Position numbers and translations under genes: made by a program. A DNA stretch of 64,000 nt from Solirubrobacter phytolaccae (GTDB taxonomy: Bacteria > Actinomycetota > Thermoleophilia > Solirubrobacterales > Solirubrobacteraceae), in NCBI RefSeq assembly GCF_027587195.1, contig NZ_JAPDDP010000016.1, positions 1-64,000 on the forward strand, read 5' to 3'. The notes below the pieces were generated by a model. That model was not told where the DNA came from. It saw nothing but the letters and a program-made list of their open reading frames with translations, and did no database searches. Positions 584 to 47,765 of this stretch are shown here, piece by piece (within the stretch, counting starts at the first letter, position 1; each line of letters begins with the position of its first letter).

Positions 584-1914
584 CGGCCATCGCCCCGCCC
601 GACATCCACGACGCCGACACGCTCGGCGCCGCCCGCGCGCTGCTCGACGCGGCCGCGGACCCGGAGGCGATGCAGAAGGAAGTCCTGGCCGCGGTCGCGC
701 GCAACGAGCAGTGGCGTGGCAACGAGTGCGTGAACCTGCTCGCGCCCGAAGCGCTCGTCTCCCCAACCGTGAGGCACCTGCTCAGCGCCGAGATCGGCCA
801 GCGCGCCGCCGAAGGGCATATCGGCCCGGTCAACCGCTGGTTCGCGGGCACGAAGCACATCGACGAGGTCGAGGCGCTGTGCGTCGAGCTGCTCAAGCGC
901 CTGTTCAAGAGCAACTACGCCGAGCACCGGCTCGTGGCGAGCATGATCGGCAACATGGCCGTCTACGCCGCGCTCACCGAGCCCGGCGACACGGTGATGA
1001 CGATCCCGCAGCCCGTCGGCGGCCACAGCTCCAACCGCTACGACGGCCCCGCCGGCATCCGCGGCTTGAACATCCTTGACGTGCCCTACGACACGCACGA
1101 GCTCGAAGCCGACCTCGACGCCTTCGCGACCGAGGCCCGCAAGGCCCGCCCCAAGCTCGTCGCGCTCGGGGCCTCCATGACCCTGTTCCCACTCCCCGTC
1201 CGCGAGATCAACGAGATCGTCAAAGAGTGGGACGGCATCGTCTTCTTCGACGGCGCCCACCAGCTCGGCCTCATCGCCGGCGGCCAGTTCCAGGACCCGC
1301 TGCGCGAGGGCGCCGACATCATCACCGGCAGCGCGGGCAAGACGTTCAGCGGCCCGCAGTCGGGCGTCGCCGTCTGGAACGACCCGAAGCTCACCAAGCC
1401 GCTGCTCGACGCCGTCTTCCCGGCGCTCGCCGCCACGCACCAGGTCAACCGCGTCGCCGCGCTGGCCGCCGCGGCCGCGGAGCTGCTCGCGTTCGGCCCC
1501 GAGTACATGGCCAACATCGTCGCCAACGCGCAGACGCTCGCCCACGCGCTGCACACCCGCGGTGTGCCGGTGCTCGGCGCGCACAAGGGCTACACGCGCA
1601 CGCACCAGGTGATCGGCGACGTGCGCCAGTTCGGCGGCGGCCTGGAGGTCGCGCACCGCCTTGCCAAGGCCAACCTCATCACGAACAAGAACCTGCTTCC
1701 GAACGACACGCCGGAGGACTGGGACCGCCCGTCCGGCCTGCGCATCGGCACCACCGAGGTCACCCGCCTCGGCATGGGCGAGCTGGAGATGCAGGCGATC
1801 GCGGACATGATCGCCGGGGTGCTCGTCGAGGGCCGCGATCCGGAGCACGTCAAGCAGGAGGCGCTCGAGCTGCGCGCCGGGTTCCAGACCGTGAAGTACT
1901 GCTTCGGAACATAA
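580..1914 (+). CDS. SHMT-like PLP-dependent enzyme (fold type I)
   Basis: 444 residues, GlyA/serine hydroxymethyltransferase family. The PLP Asp-His motif DGAHQLGL and the Schiff-base lysine region TGSAGKTFSGPQSG are clear, but canonical SHMT has TTTHKTLRGPR there, so this is a divergent paralogue, possibly an aldolase or hydroxymethyltransferase acting on another amino acid. The N-terminus carries the NLLAPEALVSPTV and EGHIGP segments in the positions of the SHMT substrate/PLP-phosphate loops. The start is the ATG overlapping the upstream regulator stop. The TAA stop is the first three bases of a palindromic repeat (core 1912-1930). It is co-directional with the AceE-like gene 27 bp downstream, suggesting a shared pathway. 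Substrate unknown. Confidence 0.8.
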   Translation: MTAIAPPDIHDADTLGAARALLDAAADPEAMQKEVLAAVARNEQWRGNECVNLLAPEALVSPTVRHLLSAEIGQRAAEGHIGPVNRWFAGTKHIDEVEALCVELLKRLFKSNYAEHRLVASMIGNMAVYAALTEPGDTVMTIPQPVGGHSSNRYDGPAGIRGLNILDVPYDTHELEADLDAFATEARKARPKLVALGASMTLFPLPVREINEIVKEWDGIVFFDGAHQLGLIAGGQFQDPLREGADIITGSAGKTFSGPQSGVAVWNDPKLTKPLLDAVFPALAATHQVNRVAALAAAAAELLAFGPEYMANIVANAQTLAHALHTRGVPVLGAHKGYTRTHQVIGDVRQFGGGLEVAHRLAKANLITNKNLLPNDTPEDWDRPSGLRIGTTEVTRLGMGELEMQAIADMIAGVLVEGRDPEHVKQEALELRAGFQTVKYCFGT

Positions 1915-1937
1915 AGACCCAGGGCCTTTATCTTTCG
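1906..1937 (+). repeat. Palindromic repeat family 1, copy A
   Basis: Core TAAAGACCCAGGGCCTTTA at 1912-1930 pairs in 8 of 9 positions around a central A, with GGAAC before and TTTCG after. Its first TAA is the stop codon of the SHMT-like gene. The tail reads TATCTTT on the plus strand, so a terminator or processing role is possible. Confidence 0.85.
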
Positions 1938-20983: not shown

Positions 20984-21933
20984 CCGGCGTCGGCGATCCG
21001 CGCCGCCTCGCGGCCCTGGCCGAGACCGGCCTGCTCGAGAACAACTCCGAGGCCGCGTTCGACCGCGTCACGCGGCTCGTCGCCGAGGTCCTGCACGTCC
21101 CCGTCGCGCTGTTCACGCTGATCACCGAGGATCGCCAGGTGTTCAAGAGCTCGGTCGGGCTCGGGCACGTGCGCGAGACGCCGCTCTCGCACTCGTTCTG
21201 CAAGTACGTCGTGGAGTCCGGCGGCCCGCTCGAGGTCGTCGACGCGCGTGAGCATCCGAAGGTGCGCGACAACCCGGCGATCGAGGACTTCGGCGTCGTC
21301 TCCTACCTCGGCATCCCGCTCACGACCTCCCACGGCGAGCGCCTCGGCGCGCTGTGCGCCGTCGACCACGAGCCGCGCCAGTGGACGGGCCGCGACCAGG
21401 GTGTGCTGGAGGACCTCGCGGGCGCGGCGATGGCCGAGGTGGAGCTGAGGCGTGCGAACCGCGCGGTGGCGGCGGCCGCGGCCGAGCTGCACTTCGCGGC
21501 GACGCACGACACGCTCACCCGCCTCGGCAACCGCCGCGCGCTGCTCGACGACCTCGGGCAGCTGCTCGAGGACGGGCACCCCGCGACGTTCGCGCTCTTC
21601 GACCTGCACGGCATGCGCGGCTACAACGACGCGCACGGGCACGTCGCCGGCGACGCGCTGCTGGCGCGGCTCGGCGCCCGTCTGGAGAGCATCCTCGTCG
21701 GCCACGGCCACGTGTACCGGCTCGGCGGCGTGCAGCTGTGCGCGCTGCTGGACGAGGGCACGGCCGAGGTCGTCGCCGCGGCCTGCACCGGGGTGCGCGA
21801 TCGCGCCAGCGGCGTGCGCTGTCGCGGCGTCACCGTGGACCTGCCGAGGGAAGGCGGCTCCGTCGCCGCCGTGCTGCGCCTCGCCGACGCGCGGCTGGCA
21901 GGCTACGGATATGTTGCGACCGCTGGCCGCTGA
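20980..21933 (+). CDS. GAF domain protein with degenerate GGDEF domain
   Basis: 317 residues. GAF domain at about 10-160 (FDRVTRLVAEVLHVPVALFTLI, ETPLSHSFCKYVVESG, GVVSYLGIPLTT), then a GGDEF-type domain (DTLTRLGNRRALLDDL). The signature loop reads RLGGVQLCAL in place of GGDEF/GGEEF, and the domain is short, so it should not make cyclic di-GMP; it may bind GTP or a partner. The start overlaps the previous stop (ATGA) and the carboxylase gene begins 23 bp before its end, so it is translated as part of the acyl-CoA operon. Confidence 0.8.
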   Translation: MTGVGDPRRLAALAETGLLENNSEAAFDRVTRLVAEVLHVPVALFTLITEDRQVFKSSVGLGHVRETPLSHSFCKYVVESGGPLEVVDAREHPKVRDNPAIEDFGVVSYLGIPLTTSHGERLGALCAVDHEPRQWTGRDQGVLEDLAGAAMAEVELRRANRAVAAAAAELHFAATHDTLTRLGNRRALLDDLGQLLEDGHPATFALFDLHGMRGYNDAHGHVAGDALLARLGARLESILVGHGHVYRLGGVQLCALLDEGTAEVVAAACTGVRDRASGVRCRGVTVDLPREGGSVAAVLRLADARLAGYGYVATAGR

Positions 21934-24624: not shown

Positions 24625-25482
24625 GTGGACGACCCCGTGATCCTGACGTGCGCCGTCTCCGGCGCGCTCGCCTCGCGCGACCAGTGCCCGGCGATCCCGT
24701 ACACGCCTTTGGAATACGCGGCCGAGGCGCGGCGGATCGCCGACGAGGGCGGCGTGATGATCCACATCCACGCGCGCCGGCCCGACGGCACGCCGTCGCA
24801 CGCGGTGGAGGACTTCGCGGCGATCACGGACGCGATCCGCGCGGAGGTCGGGCGCGGGCTGATCATCAACTACTCGACGGGCGCGCTGGGCGTGCCGCTC
24901 GAGACCAAGCAGGCGTATCTGCGCGAGCTGCGGCCCGAGGTCGGCGCGCTGAACATGGGCTCGATGAACTACGCCAAGTACTCGGCCCGTCGCAAGGACT
25001 TCGTGTTCAAGGCCGTGTTCGAGAACTCGTTCGACGACATCACTGCGCTGCTGGCGACGATGGTCGAAACCGGCATCCGGCCTGAGCACGAGTGCTTCGA
25101 CTCCGGGCACGTGGCGTCCTTGGATCCCCTGCTCGACATGGGCGTGCTGACGCCGCCGCTGCAGGTGTCGTTCGTGATGGGCGTGACCGGCGGCATCCGG
25201 CCGACCGCCCGCAACGTCGCGCACATGGCCGAGCAGGTGCCGGACGTGCCGCACCAGTGGGGCGTGATCGGCATCTCCCGCGCCCAGTGGGGCCTGCTCG
25301 CCGCCGCGCTGTCGCTGGGCGGGAACATCCGCGTCGGGCTCGAGGACAACTTCTACCTGCCCGAGGGCGAGATGGCGCGGTCGAACGGGGACCTCGTGGC
25401 GCGCGGCGCGCGGATGGCGATCGACGCGGGACGCAAGCTGGCGACCGTCGACGAGGCGCGCGCGCTGCTGGGTCTGTCGTGA
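24625..25482 (+). CDS. 3-keto-5-aminohexanoate cleavage (BKACE, DUF849) enzyme
   Basis: 285 residues, full length for the family. It begins ILTCAVSGALASRDQCPAIPYTP, with Zn ligands in MIHIHARRPDG (His 47, His 49) and the late GLEDNFYLPEGEMARSNGDLV containing the third-ligand Glu. GSMNYAK and HECFDSGHVASL are typical substrate-pocket segments. It would convert a beta-keto acid plus acetyl-CoA to acetoacetate and a new acyl-CoA, which fits the CoA-ester operon around it. Start GTG 24625; its stop overlaps the thioesterase start (GTGA). Confidence 0.9.
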   Translation: MDDPVILTCAVSGALASRDQCPAIPYTPLEYAAEARRIADEGGVMIHIHARRPDGTPSHAVEDFAAITDAIRAEVGRGLIINYSTGALGVPLETKQAYLRELRPEVGALNMGSMNYAKYSARRKDFVFKAVFENSFDDITALLATMVETGIRPEHECFDSGHVASLDPLLDMGVLTPPLQVSFVMGVTGGIRPTARNVAHMAEQVPDVPHQWGVIGISRAQWGLLAAALSLGGNIRVGLEDNFYLPEGEMARSNGDLVARGARMAIDAGRKLATVDEARALLGLS

Positions 25483-26252
25483 GCGCGTTCTACGTGCCGT
25501 TGGGCGAGGGCCGGTTCCGCGCGACCGAGCGGACGAGCGGGCCGTGGGACCCACAGCACCAGCACGCCGGGCCGCCGTCGGCCCTGCTGCTGCGCGCGTT
25601 CGAGCAGCTCGACGGCTCGGAGCTCGTGATCGCGCGGATGACGGTCGAGATCCTCGGGCCGGTCCCGATCGGCGAGCTGGAGGTGCGTGCCGAGGTCGAG
25701 CGGCCAGGACGGTCGGTCGAGCTGCTGGCGGGAACGCTGAGCGCGGACGGGCGCGACGTGCTGCGGGCACGGGCGTGGCGGGTACGGGCCTCGCCGGTGG
25801 GGATGCCCGAAGATAAAGCCCCAGGTCCTTTAACTTCGCTGCCCGACGCCGACGACGTGCCGCCCGCGGCGCTCGGCGAGGCGTTCGGGTACGCGCACGC
25901 CGTCGAGTGGCGGTGGGTGCGCGGCGGCTGGCTGGACCGCGGGCCGGCGACCGTGTGGACGCGGATGAAGCTCCCGCTCGTGGAGGGCGAGGAGCCGTCG
26001 CCGCGGCAGCGCGTGGTGGTCGTCGCCGACTCCGGCAACGGCGCGTCGAACGTGCTCGACTGGAGCCGCTACCTGTTCATCAACACCGAGCTGACCGTGC
26101 ACTTCGCGCGCGAGCCGGTCGGCGAGTGGGTGCTGCTGGACGCCGCGACGCAGCTCGCGGAAGGTGGGGCGGGGCTCGCTTCGAGCGTGCTCAGCGACCG
26201 GTCGGGACCGGTTGCGCGCGGCGCGCAGGCGTTGTTCGTCGCGCCACGATGA
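25479..26252 (+). CDS. Acyl-CoA thioesterase-like protein (double hot-dog)
   Basis: 257 residues. N-terminal hot-dog half contains QHQHAGPPSALLLRAFEQ and ARMTVEILGPVPIGELEV; C-terminal half contains GASNVLDWSRYLFINTELTVHFAREPVGEW with the usual hydrolase pattern. TesB-like thioesterases release free acids from CoA. Between the halves, residues 110-120 (PEDKAPGPLTS) are encoded by a copy of palindromic repeat family 1, read in frame. The 3' end overlaps the P450 gene by 62 bp. Last gene of the acyl-CoA operon. Confidence 0.75.
   Translation: MSAFYVPLGEGRFRATERTSGPWDPQHQHAGPPSALLLRAFEQLDGSELVIARMTVEILGPVPIGELEVRAEVERPGRSVELLAGTLSADGRDVLRARAWRVRASPVGMPEDKAPGPLTSLPDADDVPPAALGEAFGYAHAVEWRWVRGGWLDRGPATVWTRMKLPLVEGEEPSPRQRVVVVADSGNGASNVLDWSRYLFINTELTVHFAREPVGEWVLLDAATQLAEGGAGLASSVLSDRSGPVARGAQALFVAPR
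25808..25838 (+). repeat. Palindromic repeat family 1, copy B (inside a coding region)
   Basis: Core TAAAGCCCCAGGTCCTTTA at 25814-25832 with arms CGAAG/CTTCG. It is the most diverged copy (two unpaired positions) and lies in the frame GAT AAA GCC, so its TAA is not read as a stop. Confidence 0.85.
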
Positions 26253-29159: not shown

Positions 29160-29188
29160 GAACATAAAGCCCCAGGGGCTTTATGTTC
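29160..29188. repeat. Palindromic repeat family 1, copy C (perfect)
   Basis: A perfect 29 bp palindrome about one central A, with halves GAACATAAAGCCCC and GGGGCTTTATGTTC. It follows the DUF2804-like stop (29187-29189, overlapping by 2 bp) and precedes the permease gene. Confidence 0.9.
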
Positions 29189-45009: not shown

Positions 45010-45017
45010 CGATGCAG

Positions 45018-46310
45018 ATGCGGTGGCCGGTGATCCTCTATGCCCTCGCGGCCGCTGTGCTGGTCGGTGCGTCCGCGTTCGAGCTGAGCCGCGACGACAC
45101 GGCGGATCTCTCGATCAGCATCAACGTCATCGCGCCACCCGGGGCCACGCCCGTTCCCGCGCCGACGACCTCGCCGCTCGCGCCGGTGCCCGCCGCCGGG
45201 CCGGGCCTCGCGGTCGGCATCACGGAGTTCAACCCGAACCTGGTCGCCGCGGACACGCCCGCGCCGGAGCCGTGGGAGCAGGCGCGTCAGGCGATCGGGG
45301 CGCTCGACCCCACGTTCTTCCGGCTCGTGATCGACTGGCACCACCTGCAGGCGACGGCGGAGGCGCCGGCGGATCTGAACAAGCCGGAGACCGGGTGCAT
45401 GCGCGAGGTCCAGCCGTGCCTGGGATGGGCGGGCGTGCGGCAGCAGCTCGCGGCGCTCGCTTCGCGCCAGAAGGAGGATCCGGACCGCTGGCAGACGCTG
45501 GTCGTCCTGACCGGGACGCCGGAGTGGGCGGCCGCGCCGCCGTCCGGCTGCGAGCGCGAGAAGGCCACCGTGCGAGCCCGGGCGCCCCGGCCCGAGACGC
45601 TGCCCGCGTACCGGCAGCTCGTGCTCGACGTGCTCACGGTCGCGCGGGAGGAGGGGGCGACGCTGCGGTTCTGGAGCCCGTGGAACGAGCCGAACCTGCC
45701 GCCGTTCGTGTCGCCGCAGCGGGCGGAGTGCGACCCTGCCTCGCCGAGCCTCGCGCCCGGCGTCTACACCGAGCTGGCGAAGACCCTGACGAGCGCGCTC
45801 GACGAGGCACCGGGCGAGCAGCAGCTGGTGATCGGCGAGACCGCGGGCCTGCTGAAGGACACCAAGCTCGTGACGAGCGTCGGCGAGTTCATCCGCGGCC
45901 TTCCGGAGGAGCTCGTGTGCTCCTCGACGGTCTATTCCCAGCACGCGTACATCGGCGGCCGCGACCCGGTCGAGCAGGCCGCCACCGCGCTGGCCGCGCG
46001 GGGCTGCCCGGAGCCGCACACGATCTGGATCACCGAGACGGGCGTCGGTCCGGCGCCCGAGGAGTACTCCGCGGTGCCGGACCCCGCGGCCGCGGGCTGC
46101 CGCGACCTGCACGAGCGCCTCGTCCAGTGGTGGAACGACCCGCGCGTGACCGTGGCCTTCCAGTACACGGTCCGCGAGGACGACAAGTTCCCGGTCGGCC
46201 TGTTCTCCACCGACCTCACCGAGACCCGCCCGGCGCTGCGGGAATGGCAGGCCTGGGGCGGGGCACGGCCGGCGACCGCACCCCCTCCCGCAGACGCCTG
46301 CGGAACTTAA
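45018..46310 (+). CDS. Membrane-anchored glycoside hydrolase, clan GH-A type
   Basis: 430 residues. Signal anchor MRWPVILYALAAAVLVGASA, a Pro/Thr linker, then a TIM barrel: acid/base Glu in RFWSPWNEPNLP, and nucleophile Glu in TIWITETGVG. This pattern (NEP...ETG) fits families such as GH5/GH39/GH53; substrate not assignable. The mature domain faces outside. The TAA stop is the start of a palindromic repeat (copy D) and the convergent PD40 gene ends 24 bp further on. Confidence 0.75.
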   Translation: MRWPVILYALAAAVLVGASAFELSRDDTADLSISINVIAPPGATPVPAPTTSPLAPVPAAGPGLAVGITEFNPNLVAADTPAPEPWEQARQAIGALDPTFFRLVIDWHHLQATAEAPADLNKPETGCMREVQPCLGWAGVRQQLAALASRQKEDPDRWQTLVVLTGTPEWAAAPPSGCEREKATVRARAPRPETLPAYRQLVLDVLTVAREEGATLRFWSPWNEPNLPPFVSPQRAECDPASPSLAPGVYTELAKTLTSALDEAPGEQQLVIGETAGLLKDTKLVTSVGEFIRGLPEELVCSSTVYSQHAYIGGRDPVEQAATALAARGCPEPHTIWITETGVGPAPEEYSAVPDPAAAGCRDLHERLVQWWNDPRVTVAFQYTVREDDKFPVGLFSTDLTETRPALREWQAWGGARPATAPPPADACGT

Positions 46311-46331
46311 AGGCCCAGGGCCTTTAGGCTT
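46303..46331. repeat. Palindromic repeat family 1, copy D
   Basis: Core TAAAGGCCCAGGGCCTTTA at 46308-46326, perfectly paired around the central A. Its first TAA is the glycoside hydrolase stop codon. Confidence 0.9.
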
Positions 46332-46334
46332 CCT

Positions 46335-47681
46335 TTAGCGCACGTTTACGTTCAGCGTCTTGCTGATCGTGGCGCCCGAGGACGGCTTGAACGTGACCTT
46401 CACGGACAGCTTGCCCTTGCGTGAGACCTTCAGCTTGAGCTTGGCGGTGCCGGCCTTCTTGACCTTGGCGGAGGCCTTGCCGACCGTCTTGGAGCCGGCC
46501 TTGGCGACCGCGGAGAGCTTGCCCTTGCCCGTGACCTTCACGGAGAGCTTCACGCCGGACTTCTTGCTGGCGCTGGAGACCGTCACCGAGAGCGACTTGC
46601 CGGTCGGCTGCGTCGGCTGGGCGGGCGGCGTCGGCTGAGCCGGAGGCGTGGGCTGGGCGGGGCGGGCCGGCGGGACGTCGGCGGGACCCCAGTCGGGCTC
46701 CGTGGCGCCCGGGATGAGCACTGCGGGGGTCGGCGTGGCGCCGTCGAGCGTGCACTCGGAGGCGAAGTTCGGCACCGCGGCGATCTTCAGCCCCGCGCCG
46801 TCGGTGAACGCCATGTTCGAGCCGTCCGGCGACCAGGTGGGCTGGCTGTAGGAGCCGCCGACCGGCCCTTCGTAGCGGTAGCAACGGACCACGTCCGAGC
46901 CGATCGGGTTGCCGTCCTTCCACCCGCTCGGGAAGCCACGGATGAGGTAGACGCTGAGCGTGCTGTCGTTGGCGCCGGTCTGCGCCGCGAGCTTGCGCTT
47001 GTCGCGCGTGAGCTCGGCGCCGCTCATGTGCGGGTTGTCGCCCGTGTCGCTGAACCAGGCCATGACCATGTTGCCGTGGCCGTTGCCGCCGTCGGAGATG
47101 CGGTCGAGCAGCAGGTCGTGGTTCGGGAGGTGGGTCGGGTTGGCGAGCAGCGTCATGTCGTTGTCGATCCACGACGGGTGGCGCCAGCCCGAGTGGTAGC
47201 CGATCGCGTCGCCGGTCTTCCAGTCGGTCATGCGATCCGACCACGTGTAGCCCGTCCCGCCCTCGTTGAGGGCGACGAGGCACTTGGGCGGGAAGCAGTC
47301 CGGCGTCGTGGTCTGCGAGAGCCAGTAGTAGGTGTAGGCGACCTTCGTGCCGTCGGGCGAGATCGCGGGGTCGTACGGACCCCAGAACGACTTGCCCGGG
47401 CTCGTGCTCGAGACGGGCGTGGCGAAGTCGGCCTGGACGGCGCCGTCGCGCGCCAGCCGGTGGAGGCGGACGCCGTTGAGGGCGACGATCGTGCCGTCGT
47501 CGGACTGGGTCACGTCGGAGTAGCCGCCGGTCGAAGTCACCTGGTACTGGCGCGACCCGTCCGGGGTCGTGAGCCAGACGTTGCCGTCCTTGACATAGGC
47601 GATCGAATCGGCCGAGGCACTCGACGCGCACGCCAGCACGATGAAGGCGGCGGCGAAGCCTGCGAAGAGAGTGCGAATCAT
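46335..47681 (-). CDS. Exported PD40 (TolB-like) beta-propeller protein
   Basis: 448 residues. Signal peptide MIRTLFAGFAAAFIVLACASSASA, then PD40 repeats (AISPDGTKVAY, TWSPDGSNMAF), a Pro/Thr linker PTPPAQPTPPAQP, and a C-terminal beta-sandwich-like region rich in Lys/Ser/Val. Propeller domains of this kind bind proteins or glycans outside the cell. It is bracketed by copies D and E of palindromic repeat family 1, 1.4 kb apart. Confidence 0.75.
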   Translation of the reverse strand: MIRTLFAGFAAAFIVLACASSASADSIAYVKDGNVWLTTPDGSRQYQVTSTGGYSDVTQSDDGTIVALNGVRLHRLARDGAVQADFATPVSSTSPGKSFWGPYDPAISPDGTKVAYTYYWLSQTTTPDCFPPKCLVALNEGGTGYTWSDRMTDWKTGDAIGYHSGWRHPSWIDNDMTLLANPTHLPNHDLLLDRISDGGNGHGNMVMAWFSDTGDNPHMSGAELTRDKRKLAAQTGANDSTLSVYLIRGFPSGWKDGNPIGSDVVRCYRYEGPVGGSYSQPTWSPDGSNMAFTDGAGLKIAAVPNFASECTLDGATPTPAVLIPGATEPDWGPADVPPARPAQPTPPAQPTPPAQPTQPTGKSLSVTVSSASKKSGVKLSVKVTGKGKLSAVAKAGSKTVGKASAKVKKAGTAKLKLKVSRKGKLSVKVTFKPSSGATISKTLNVNVR

Positions 47682-47735: not shown

Positions 47736-47765
47736 GAACCTAAAGACCCAGGGCCTTTAAGAACC
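47736..47765. repeat. Palindromic repeat family 1, copy E
   Basis: Core TAAAGACCCAGGGCCTTTA at 47741-47759, identical to copy A. The minus-strand TAA at 47757-47759 is the stop codon of the membrane protein gene that follows. Confidence 0.9.

What the first reader, a model, noticed from the sequence alone, without database searches (positions are those of the whole stretch)
25808..25838. Same palindrome read through in the linker of a thioesterase
Copy B lies inside an open reading frame between two hot-dog halves, adding about ten residues (PEDKAPGPLTS) without breaking the frame. It is the most diverged copy, consistent with decay after insertion. This shows the element moves or arises within coding sequence.
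Basis: partly seen in the sequence, partly recalled or inferred. Interest (0 to 1): 0.7.

Follow-up and report, generated by a model that had tools for sequence, protein, structure and literature searches.

The report
Transposase-linked palindrome inside a thioesterase gene
The palindrome in this thioesterase gene is one of about 74 short repeats in the genome that belong with a resident REP-type transposase gene; it is read in frame as part of a linker loop, and comparing sister species shows that such sites are kept while the palindrome's core is repeatedly overwritten.

Summary
The palindrome is real: 29 bp at 25809-25837 (31 bp with one more pair), read in frame as EDKAPGPLTS between the two hot-dog domains of an acyl-CoA thioesterase. 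It is one of 5 copies in the window and 74 in the genome of a Solirubrobacter relative. It is not the most decayed copy: its 19-bp core is identical in 9 copies, including one next to a REP-associated tyrosine transposase (RAYT) gene. The RAYT loci read in the genus carry palindromes of this TAAAG...CTTTA kind; the one congener without a RAYT has essentially none. I conclude these are REP/TIR-type elements dispersed by RAYTs, a known kind in a lineage where I found no report. Sister genome G002 has a palindrome of a different core at the same codons; five other congeners (S. deserti- and S. soli-like among them) lack it. So insertion is supported, but it is old, its edges are inexact (net +4 and +1 residues, not about ten), and no target duplication is seen. 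The unexpected result: dispersed sites are inherited while core class is not (12 of 24 concordant, chance 10.4). One nested and one half-collapsed copy suggest new elements insert into old ones.

The parts
25809..25837 (.). REP/TIR-type palindrome (copy B), GAAGATAAAGCCCCAGGTCCTTTAACTTC; 19-bp core 25814-25832; read in frame as EDKAPGPLTS
25479..26252 (+). acyl-CoA thioesterase gene (GTG start) that carries the element
25536..25781 (+). N-terminal hot-dog domain 4HBT_3 (PF13622)
25857..26240 (+). C-terminal hot-dog domain 4HBT_3C (PF20789)
1907..1935 (.). copy of the element (core 1912-1930); its TAA is the stop codon of the gene 580-1914
29160..29188 (.). copy of the element (core 29165-29183), perfect palindrome GAACATAAAGCCCCAGGGGCTTTATGTTC between two minus-strand genes
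46303..46331 (.). copy of the element (core 46308-46326) between convergent genes; supplies the stop codon of the gene 45012-46310
47736..47764 (.). copy of the element (core 47741-47759) between two minus-strand genes

Best explanation
The palindrome is a non-autonomous REP-like element (of the kind called TIR repeats where the transposase is a TIRYT). It was dispersed by a HUH/Y1 tyrosine transposase (RAYT) encoded in the same genome, whose gene is flanked by the same palindrome. Shown: family, copy number, in-frame reading, RAYT flanking, co-occurrence within the genus, presence/absence polymorphism, shared sites with different cores. Inferred: RAYT cuts and joins the element as a single-stranded hairpin and inserts it with some loss of target sequence. 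An insertion in the linker of the thioesterase was tolerated because one register of the palindrome is free of stops; it occurred before the window species and G002 split. Later, elements of the RAYT's current type inserted into the centres of old copies, and collapse between the shared TAAAG/CTTTA arms replaced the core in place.
For: 74 of the 75 TAAA-N11-TTTA sequences in the genome have the CC[AT]GG centre, control 1. Both G000 RAYT genes (PF01797; NF047646 REP_Tyr_transpos is the best NCBIfam model, 76.8 and 57.3 bits, below its cut-off of 80) and those read in G001, G002, G004, G005 and G006 have TAAAG...CTTTA-type palindromes beside or overlapping them. TAAAG-N7-15-CTTTA count is 34-132 in the six congeners with a RAYT, 1 in G003 without. 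The strict form is confined to this genus among 61 genomes, apart from one hit in G045 below its control count. The thioesterase site is occupied in G002 and not in five congeners. Four species carry four different versions at one coding site (L068), and five species all carry palindromes at another (L030). Core class is independent of site inheritance, while foot bases stay more alike than shuffled pairs even where the class changed (69/110 against 55.9, P about 0.001). There is a nested element in an ispE-like gene of G002 with the frame kept, and a half-collapsed one. Five close pairs under 100 bp against 0.03 expected.
Against: No transposition was observed, no target-site duplication found, and no exact empty site. 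The elements lack the GTAG or CGTC tag of classical REPs. NCBIfam scores are below the curated cut-off. Net length gains in coding sites are +3 to +18 nt, less than the 29 bp of the element, so insertion must be coupled to target loss or later trimming. Within-genus co-occurrence rests on seven genomes, of which two (G001, G006) are near-identical at the loci read. Other family members have RAYTs without TAAAG palindromes; some of those have different flanking palindromes. The class table and foot strings were read by hand from alignments.
Confidence: 0.82

Rival explanations
1. The palindromes are binding sites of a host DNA-binding protein (regulator, nucleoid or chromosome-organising factor), possibly a domesticated RAYT, and the sites change sequence because the protein's specificity changes.
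For: Near-perfect symmetry and strict conservation of a 19-21 bp core; sites conserved between species for long times; even spread along the G002 contigs; species-specific cores follow the core next to the RAYT.
Against: Sites are mostly at 3' gene ends and inside genes, with only a few in divergent promoter regions. Imperfect cores such as TAAAGCCCCAGGTCCTTTA exist in many identical copies, which is expected of copying rather than of binding-site drift. Two core classes coexist in both genomes and swap independently of site. Elements are nested in one another.
Confidence: 0.1
2. Same sites reflect repeated independent insertion of RAYT elements at hotspots (for example gene ends or linker codons), not inheritance followed by overwriting. 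(A rival to the overwriting step only, not to the RAYT origin.)
For: Core classes are uncorrelated between species at the same site; gene 3' ends are preferred.
Against: Positions agree to the base or nearly so inside coding sequence, and foot bases that would travel with an independent insertion remain more alike than shuffled pairs; the nested and half-collapsed copies show insertion into existing elements.
Confidence: 0.3
3. Ordinary linker divergence: the palindrome arose locally by mutation or quasi-palindrome correction in a fast-evolving linker and is not a mobile element.
For: The linker is indel-rich in all relatives; net length change is small.
Against: The same 19-bp core is found in 9 unrelated places, which local mutation cannot give.
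Confidence: 0.02
4. Compact bidirectional transcription terminators or mRNA 3' ends spread by selection.
For: Many copies overlap stop codons, and several convergent gene pairs share one element that supplies both stops.
Against: No T-run; imperfect cores fold weakly as single strands (-2 to -3 kcal/mol); 13 of 74 called inside coding sequence.
Confidence: 0.05

Closest known systems
TIRtrons / TIRYTs and their TIR repeats (Di Nocera et al. 2013, PMC3733652)
   Same: Y1 tyrosine transposase gene flanked by inverted, partly self-complementary repeats without a GTAG tag; the repeat also forms a moderately abundant dispersed family of singles and pairs; a GGGG-rich leader motif (GGGGCGA[GA] here, GGGGWSAS there).
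   Different: Solirubrobacter (Actinomycetota) host, a phylum whose name does not occur in that paper's text; leader motif differs from GGGGWSAS in one position; site-by-site comparison of core replacement is added here.
REP elements with RAYTs / REPtrons and REPINs (PMC3116915, PMC6006769)
   Same: 20-40 bp palindromes, extragenic bias, stop codons supplied by the element, close pairs, one RAYT per palindrome type, occasional in-frame intragenic copies in linkers.
   Different: No GTAG/GTGG foot; symmetrical palindrome with similar feet on both sides.
Orthoswitch of RAYT-flanking REPs (Nunvar et al. 2013, PMC3686654)
   Same: Syntenic RAYT genes flanked by different REP classes in related strains; two classes coexisting with one RAYT.
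   Different: That model lets old REPs stay and decay while new ones spread; here dispersed old sites carry another core at the same position.
Rickettsia palindromic elements in proteins (cited in PMC3733652)
   Same: Palindromes read through in coding sequence in a stop-free frame.
   Different: Rickettsial elements are a different family; the ones here are tied to a RAYT.

Membership tests
RAYT-associated REP (GTAG superfamily) | 20-40 bp palindrome in many dispersed copies | tested here: met
   29 bp, 74 copies
RAYT-associated REP (GTAG superfamily) | GTAG/GTGG tetranucleotide at the foot | tested here: not met
   feet are GAAC/GAAG/GTCAA-like; GTAG or CTAC within 17 nt in only 11 of 74 copies
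TIR repeat of a TIRtron | transposase gene of the Y1/RAYT kind flanked by the repeat on both sides | tested here: met
   C149 RAYT between copies at 21109 and 21701; syntenic RAYTs in G002 and others likewise
TIR repeat of a TIRtron | HUH motif and Y1_Tnp domain in the transposase | tested here: met
   PF01797 44-46 bits over cut-off 23; CLMGNHVHLL motif
TIR repeat of a TIRtron | GGGGWSAS motif near the TIR | tested here: inconclusive
   GGGGCGA[GA] follows the 5' palindrome in the RAYT loci, one position off the consensus
TIR repeat of a TIRtron | mobilised by its transposase | not testable with these tools
   co-occurrence and polymorphism only
REPIN | replicating unit is an inverted pair with fixed spacing | tested here: inconclusive
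   pairs about 75 bp apart recur in G001/G006; in G000 most copies are single, five pairs at 33-99 bp
CGTC-tagged REP | unpaired CGTC tag at one end and no associated transposase | tested here: not met
   CGTC in the E class is inside the stem; the family is RAYT-associated

The most novel reading that the evidence does not exclude
RAYT palindrome sites act as stable chromosomal landing pads: a site, once made, even inside a protein-coding gene, is kept through several species of a genus while its core is overwritten again and again by insertion of the current RAYT's element into the centre of the old one, so proteins such as this thioesterase, an ispE-like kinase and a phosphotransferase-like protein carry a loop whose peptide follows the resident transposase.
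Probability: 0.4. Interest if true: 0.7.

Novelty: new variant of a known kind. Interest (0 to 1): 0.5.

Why it matters
How REP-like elements move, and why they persist at fixed sites, is unresolved. In this genus the same coding and intergenic sites can be followed through several species with different cores, with an intact nested element and a half-collapsed one. That gives a concrete, testable route (insertion into an existing palindrome followed by collapse) for the 'orthoswitch' inferred in Pseudomonas and Stenotrophomonas, and defined substrates for a RAYT assay.

Tried and rejected
Decay of copy B: rejected, since its core is identical in 9 copies. Simple clean insertion: rejected, since net gain is +12 nt (window species) and +3 nt (G002) over empty relatives for a 29-bp element. 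Conserved RNA/DNA hairpin as the selected feature: imperfect cores fold poorly. GTAG/CGTC tag: absent. Integron attC or Xer/pdif-like sites: considered from memory because of GTT/AAC-like feet; dropped when the RAYT link appeared, not tested. Other palindrome types in the window: none beyond chance. The first dna query to relatives was sent cut at 3681 nt and covers eight sites, not fourteen. Literature searches for Solirubrobacter palindromes or RAYTs in Actinobacteria gave nothing relevant in the open library.

Full report
What is there. At 25809-25837 the sequence GAAGATAAAGCCCCAGGTCCTTTAACTTC is an imperfect palindrome around A25823, lying in frame in an ORF at 25479-26252. The ORF is an acyl-CoA thioesterase with 4HBT_3 and 4HBT_3C domains. 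The element encodes EDKAPGPLTS in the gap between the domains, which a confident AlphaFold2 model (mean pLDDT 90.9) shows as a loop of lower confidence. The core pattern TAAAGNNCCNGGNNCTTTA occurs five times in the window and in no shuffle.

Genome-wide family. The genome (7.74 Mb, 169 contigs) holds 74 copies of TAAANNNCCAGGNNNTTTA and 75 of TAAA-N11-TTTA, with controls of 0 and 1. There are two classes: 49 with TAAAG arms in a few repeated subtypes and 25 identical TAAACGTCCAGGACGTTTA. The core of the thioesterase copy is found in 9 copies, so it is a standard subtype. Beyond the core, feet of the GAANN/NNTTC kind are AT-rich and only partly paired. By a codon-usage gene caller written here, 13 of 74 lie inside coding sequence (one of these only 16 bp from a gene end) and most others abut or overlap 3' gene ends, often supplying the stop codon; in several convergent pairs one element supplies both stops. 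In the ten elements checked that lie well inside genes, the palindrome is always in the register xxK[A/G/D]PGxL, the only stop-free one.

The transposase. One locus with two copies, C149:21109 and 21701, encloses a gene of the IS200-like Y1 transposase family whose best NCBIfam model is REP-associated tyrosine transposase, slightly under its cut-off. The copy at 21109 has exactly the core of the thioesterase copy. The syntenic gene in G002 is flanked by the CGTCCAGGACG class, and those in G001 and G004 by GGGGTCTGACCCC palindromes with the same TAAAG/CTTTA arms. A second RAYT lineage in G000, G001, G004 and G006 goes with AGGGACAGTCCCT palindromes. In the genus, six genomes with RAYTs have 34-132 TAAAG-N7-15-CTTTA palindromes; G003, which has no RAYT, has one. 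Across 61 genomes of the order the strict form CTAAAG-N7-15-CTTTAG is found only in these six, apart from one hit in G045 below its control count. Several RAYTs in other genera of the family have other palindromes beside them. The genus is Solirubrobacter: G001 and G005 match S. deserti and S. soli records at this gene.

The thioesterase site in relatives. G002 has GAACATAAAGGGCCTGGCCCTTTATGTTC ending at the same codon, G001/G006, G004, G005 and G003 have no palindrome, and the residues between the conserved VR and LP are 17, 14 and 13 in G000, G002 and the G001/G004/G005 group. So the element entered before G000 and G002 split, or was lost elsewhere, and part of the old linker is gone.

Sites are inherited, cores are not. 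Comparing G000 and G002 loci, 24 sites are shared. Class agrees in 12, against 10.4 expected if class were shuffled among the sites (P about 0.34). At eleven sites of changed class the ten foot bases remain more alike than in shuffled pairs (69/110 against 55.9). The classes and foot strings were read by hand from the alignments. With more species, one coding site (L030) carries palindromes in five genomes and another (L068) four different versions in four genomes, while other sites are clearly empty in some. In an ispE-like gene of G002 (named from its sequence, not tested) a GGGGTCAGACCCC palindrome sits in the centre of a TAAAGA...GGTCTTTA palindrome with the frame kept; at L147 a left half of one type is joined to a complete centre of another. 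I read these as steps of replacement: insertion into the centre, then collapse between identical arms. This is inference from two examples.

Comparison with what is known. REP elements, RAYTs, REPtrons and TIRtrons are described (PMC3116915, PMC3733652, PMC6006769), including intragenic copies in linkers, stop codons supplied by the element, and, in Xanthomonas recB, different REPs at about the same site. The switching of REP class next to an orthologous RAYT is the orthoswitch of PMC3686654, whose model leaves old dispersed copies to decay. The present elements lack the GTAG and CGTC tags and fit TIR repeats best. I found no report for Solirubrobacter in the open library, which does not exclude one.

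Verdict. The finding is a real, in-frame, RAYT-linked palindromic element, old rather than recent, and of a known kind. What is worth a specialist's attention is the set of shared sites with changing cores.

Noticed in passing
46322-46352: After the 46308 copy the sequence continues CTTTA-N6-CTTTA-N6-GTTTA, 11-bp phased half-sites; roughly a dozen of the 74 genome copies have a similar tail. Origin unknown, perhaps remnants of older elements.
   Followed up: partly
L198 and L202 (G004), at sites orthologous to L028 and L048: G004 has an insertion of about 300 bp with GAGCACACC...GGTGTGCTC ends at two different sites where G000 and G002 have the small palindromes; it looks like a separate miniature element.
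   Followed up: no
L172, L170, L173, L174 upstream of the RAYT start: A GGGGCGA[GA] motif follows the 5' palindrome in the RAYT loci read, also in some of other genera.
   Followed up: no
L034, L046, L048, L053, L059, L074: Several copies share the left flank GTTGNNNNGTCAATAAA (GTAAATAAA in L074), not palindromic with the right side.
   Followed up: no
L172 and L170 RAYT C-termini: The downstream palindrome is read in frame as the last residues of the RAYT itself (LLKGPGPLSF, LVKRPGRLSW).
   Followed up: no
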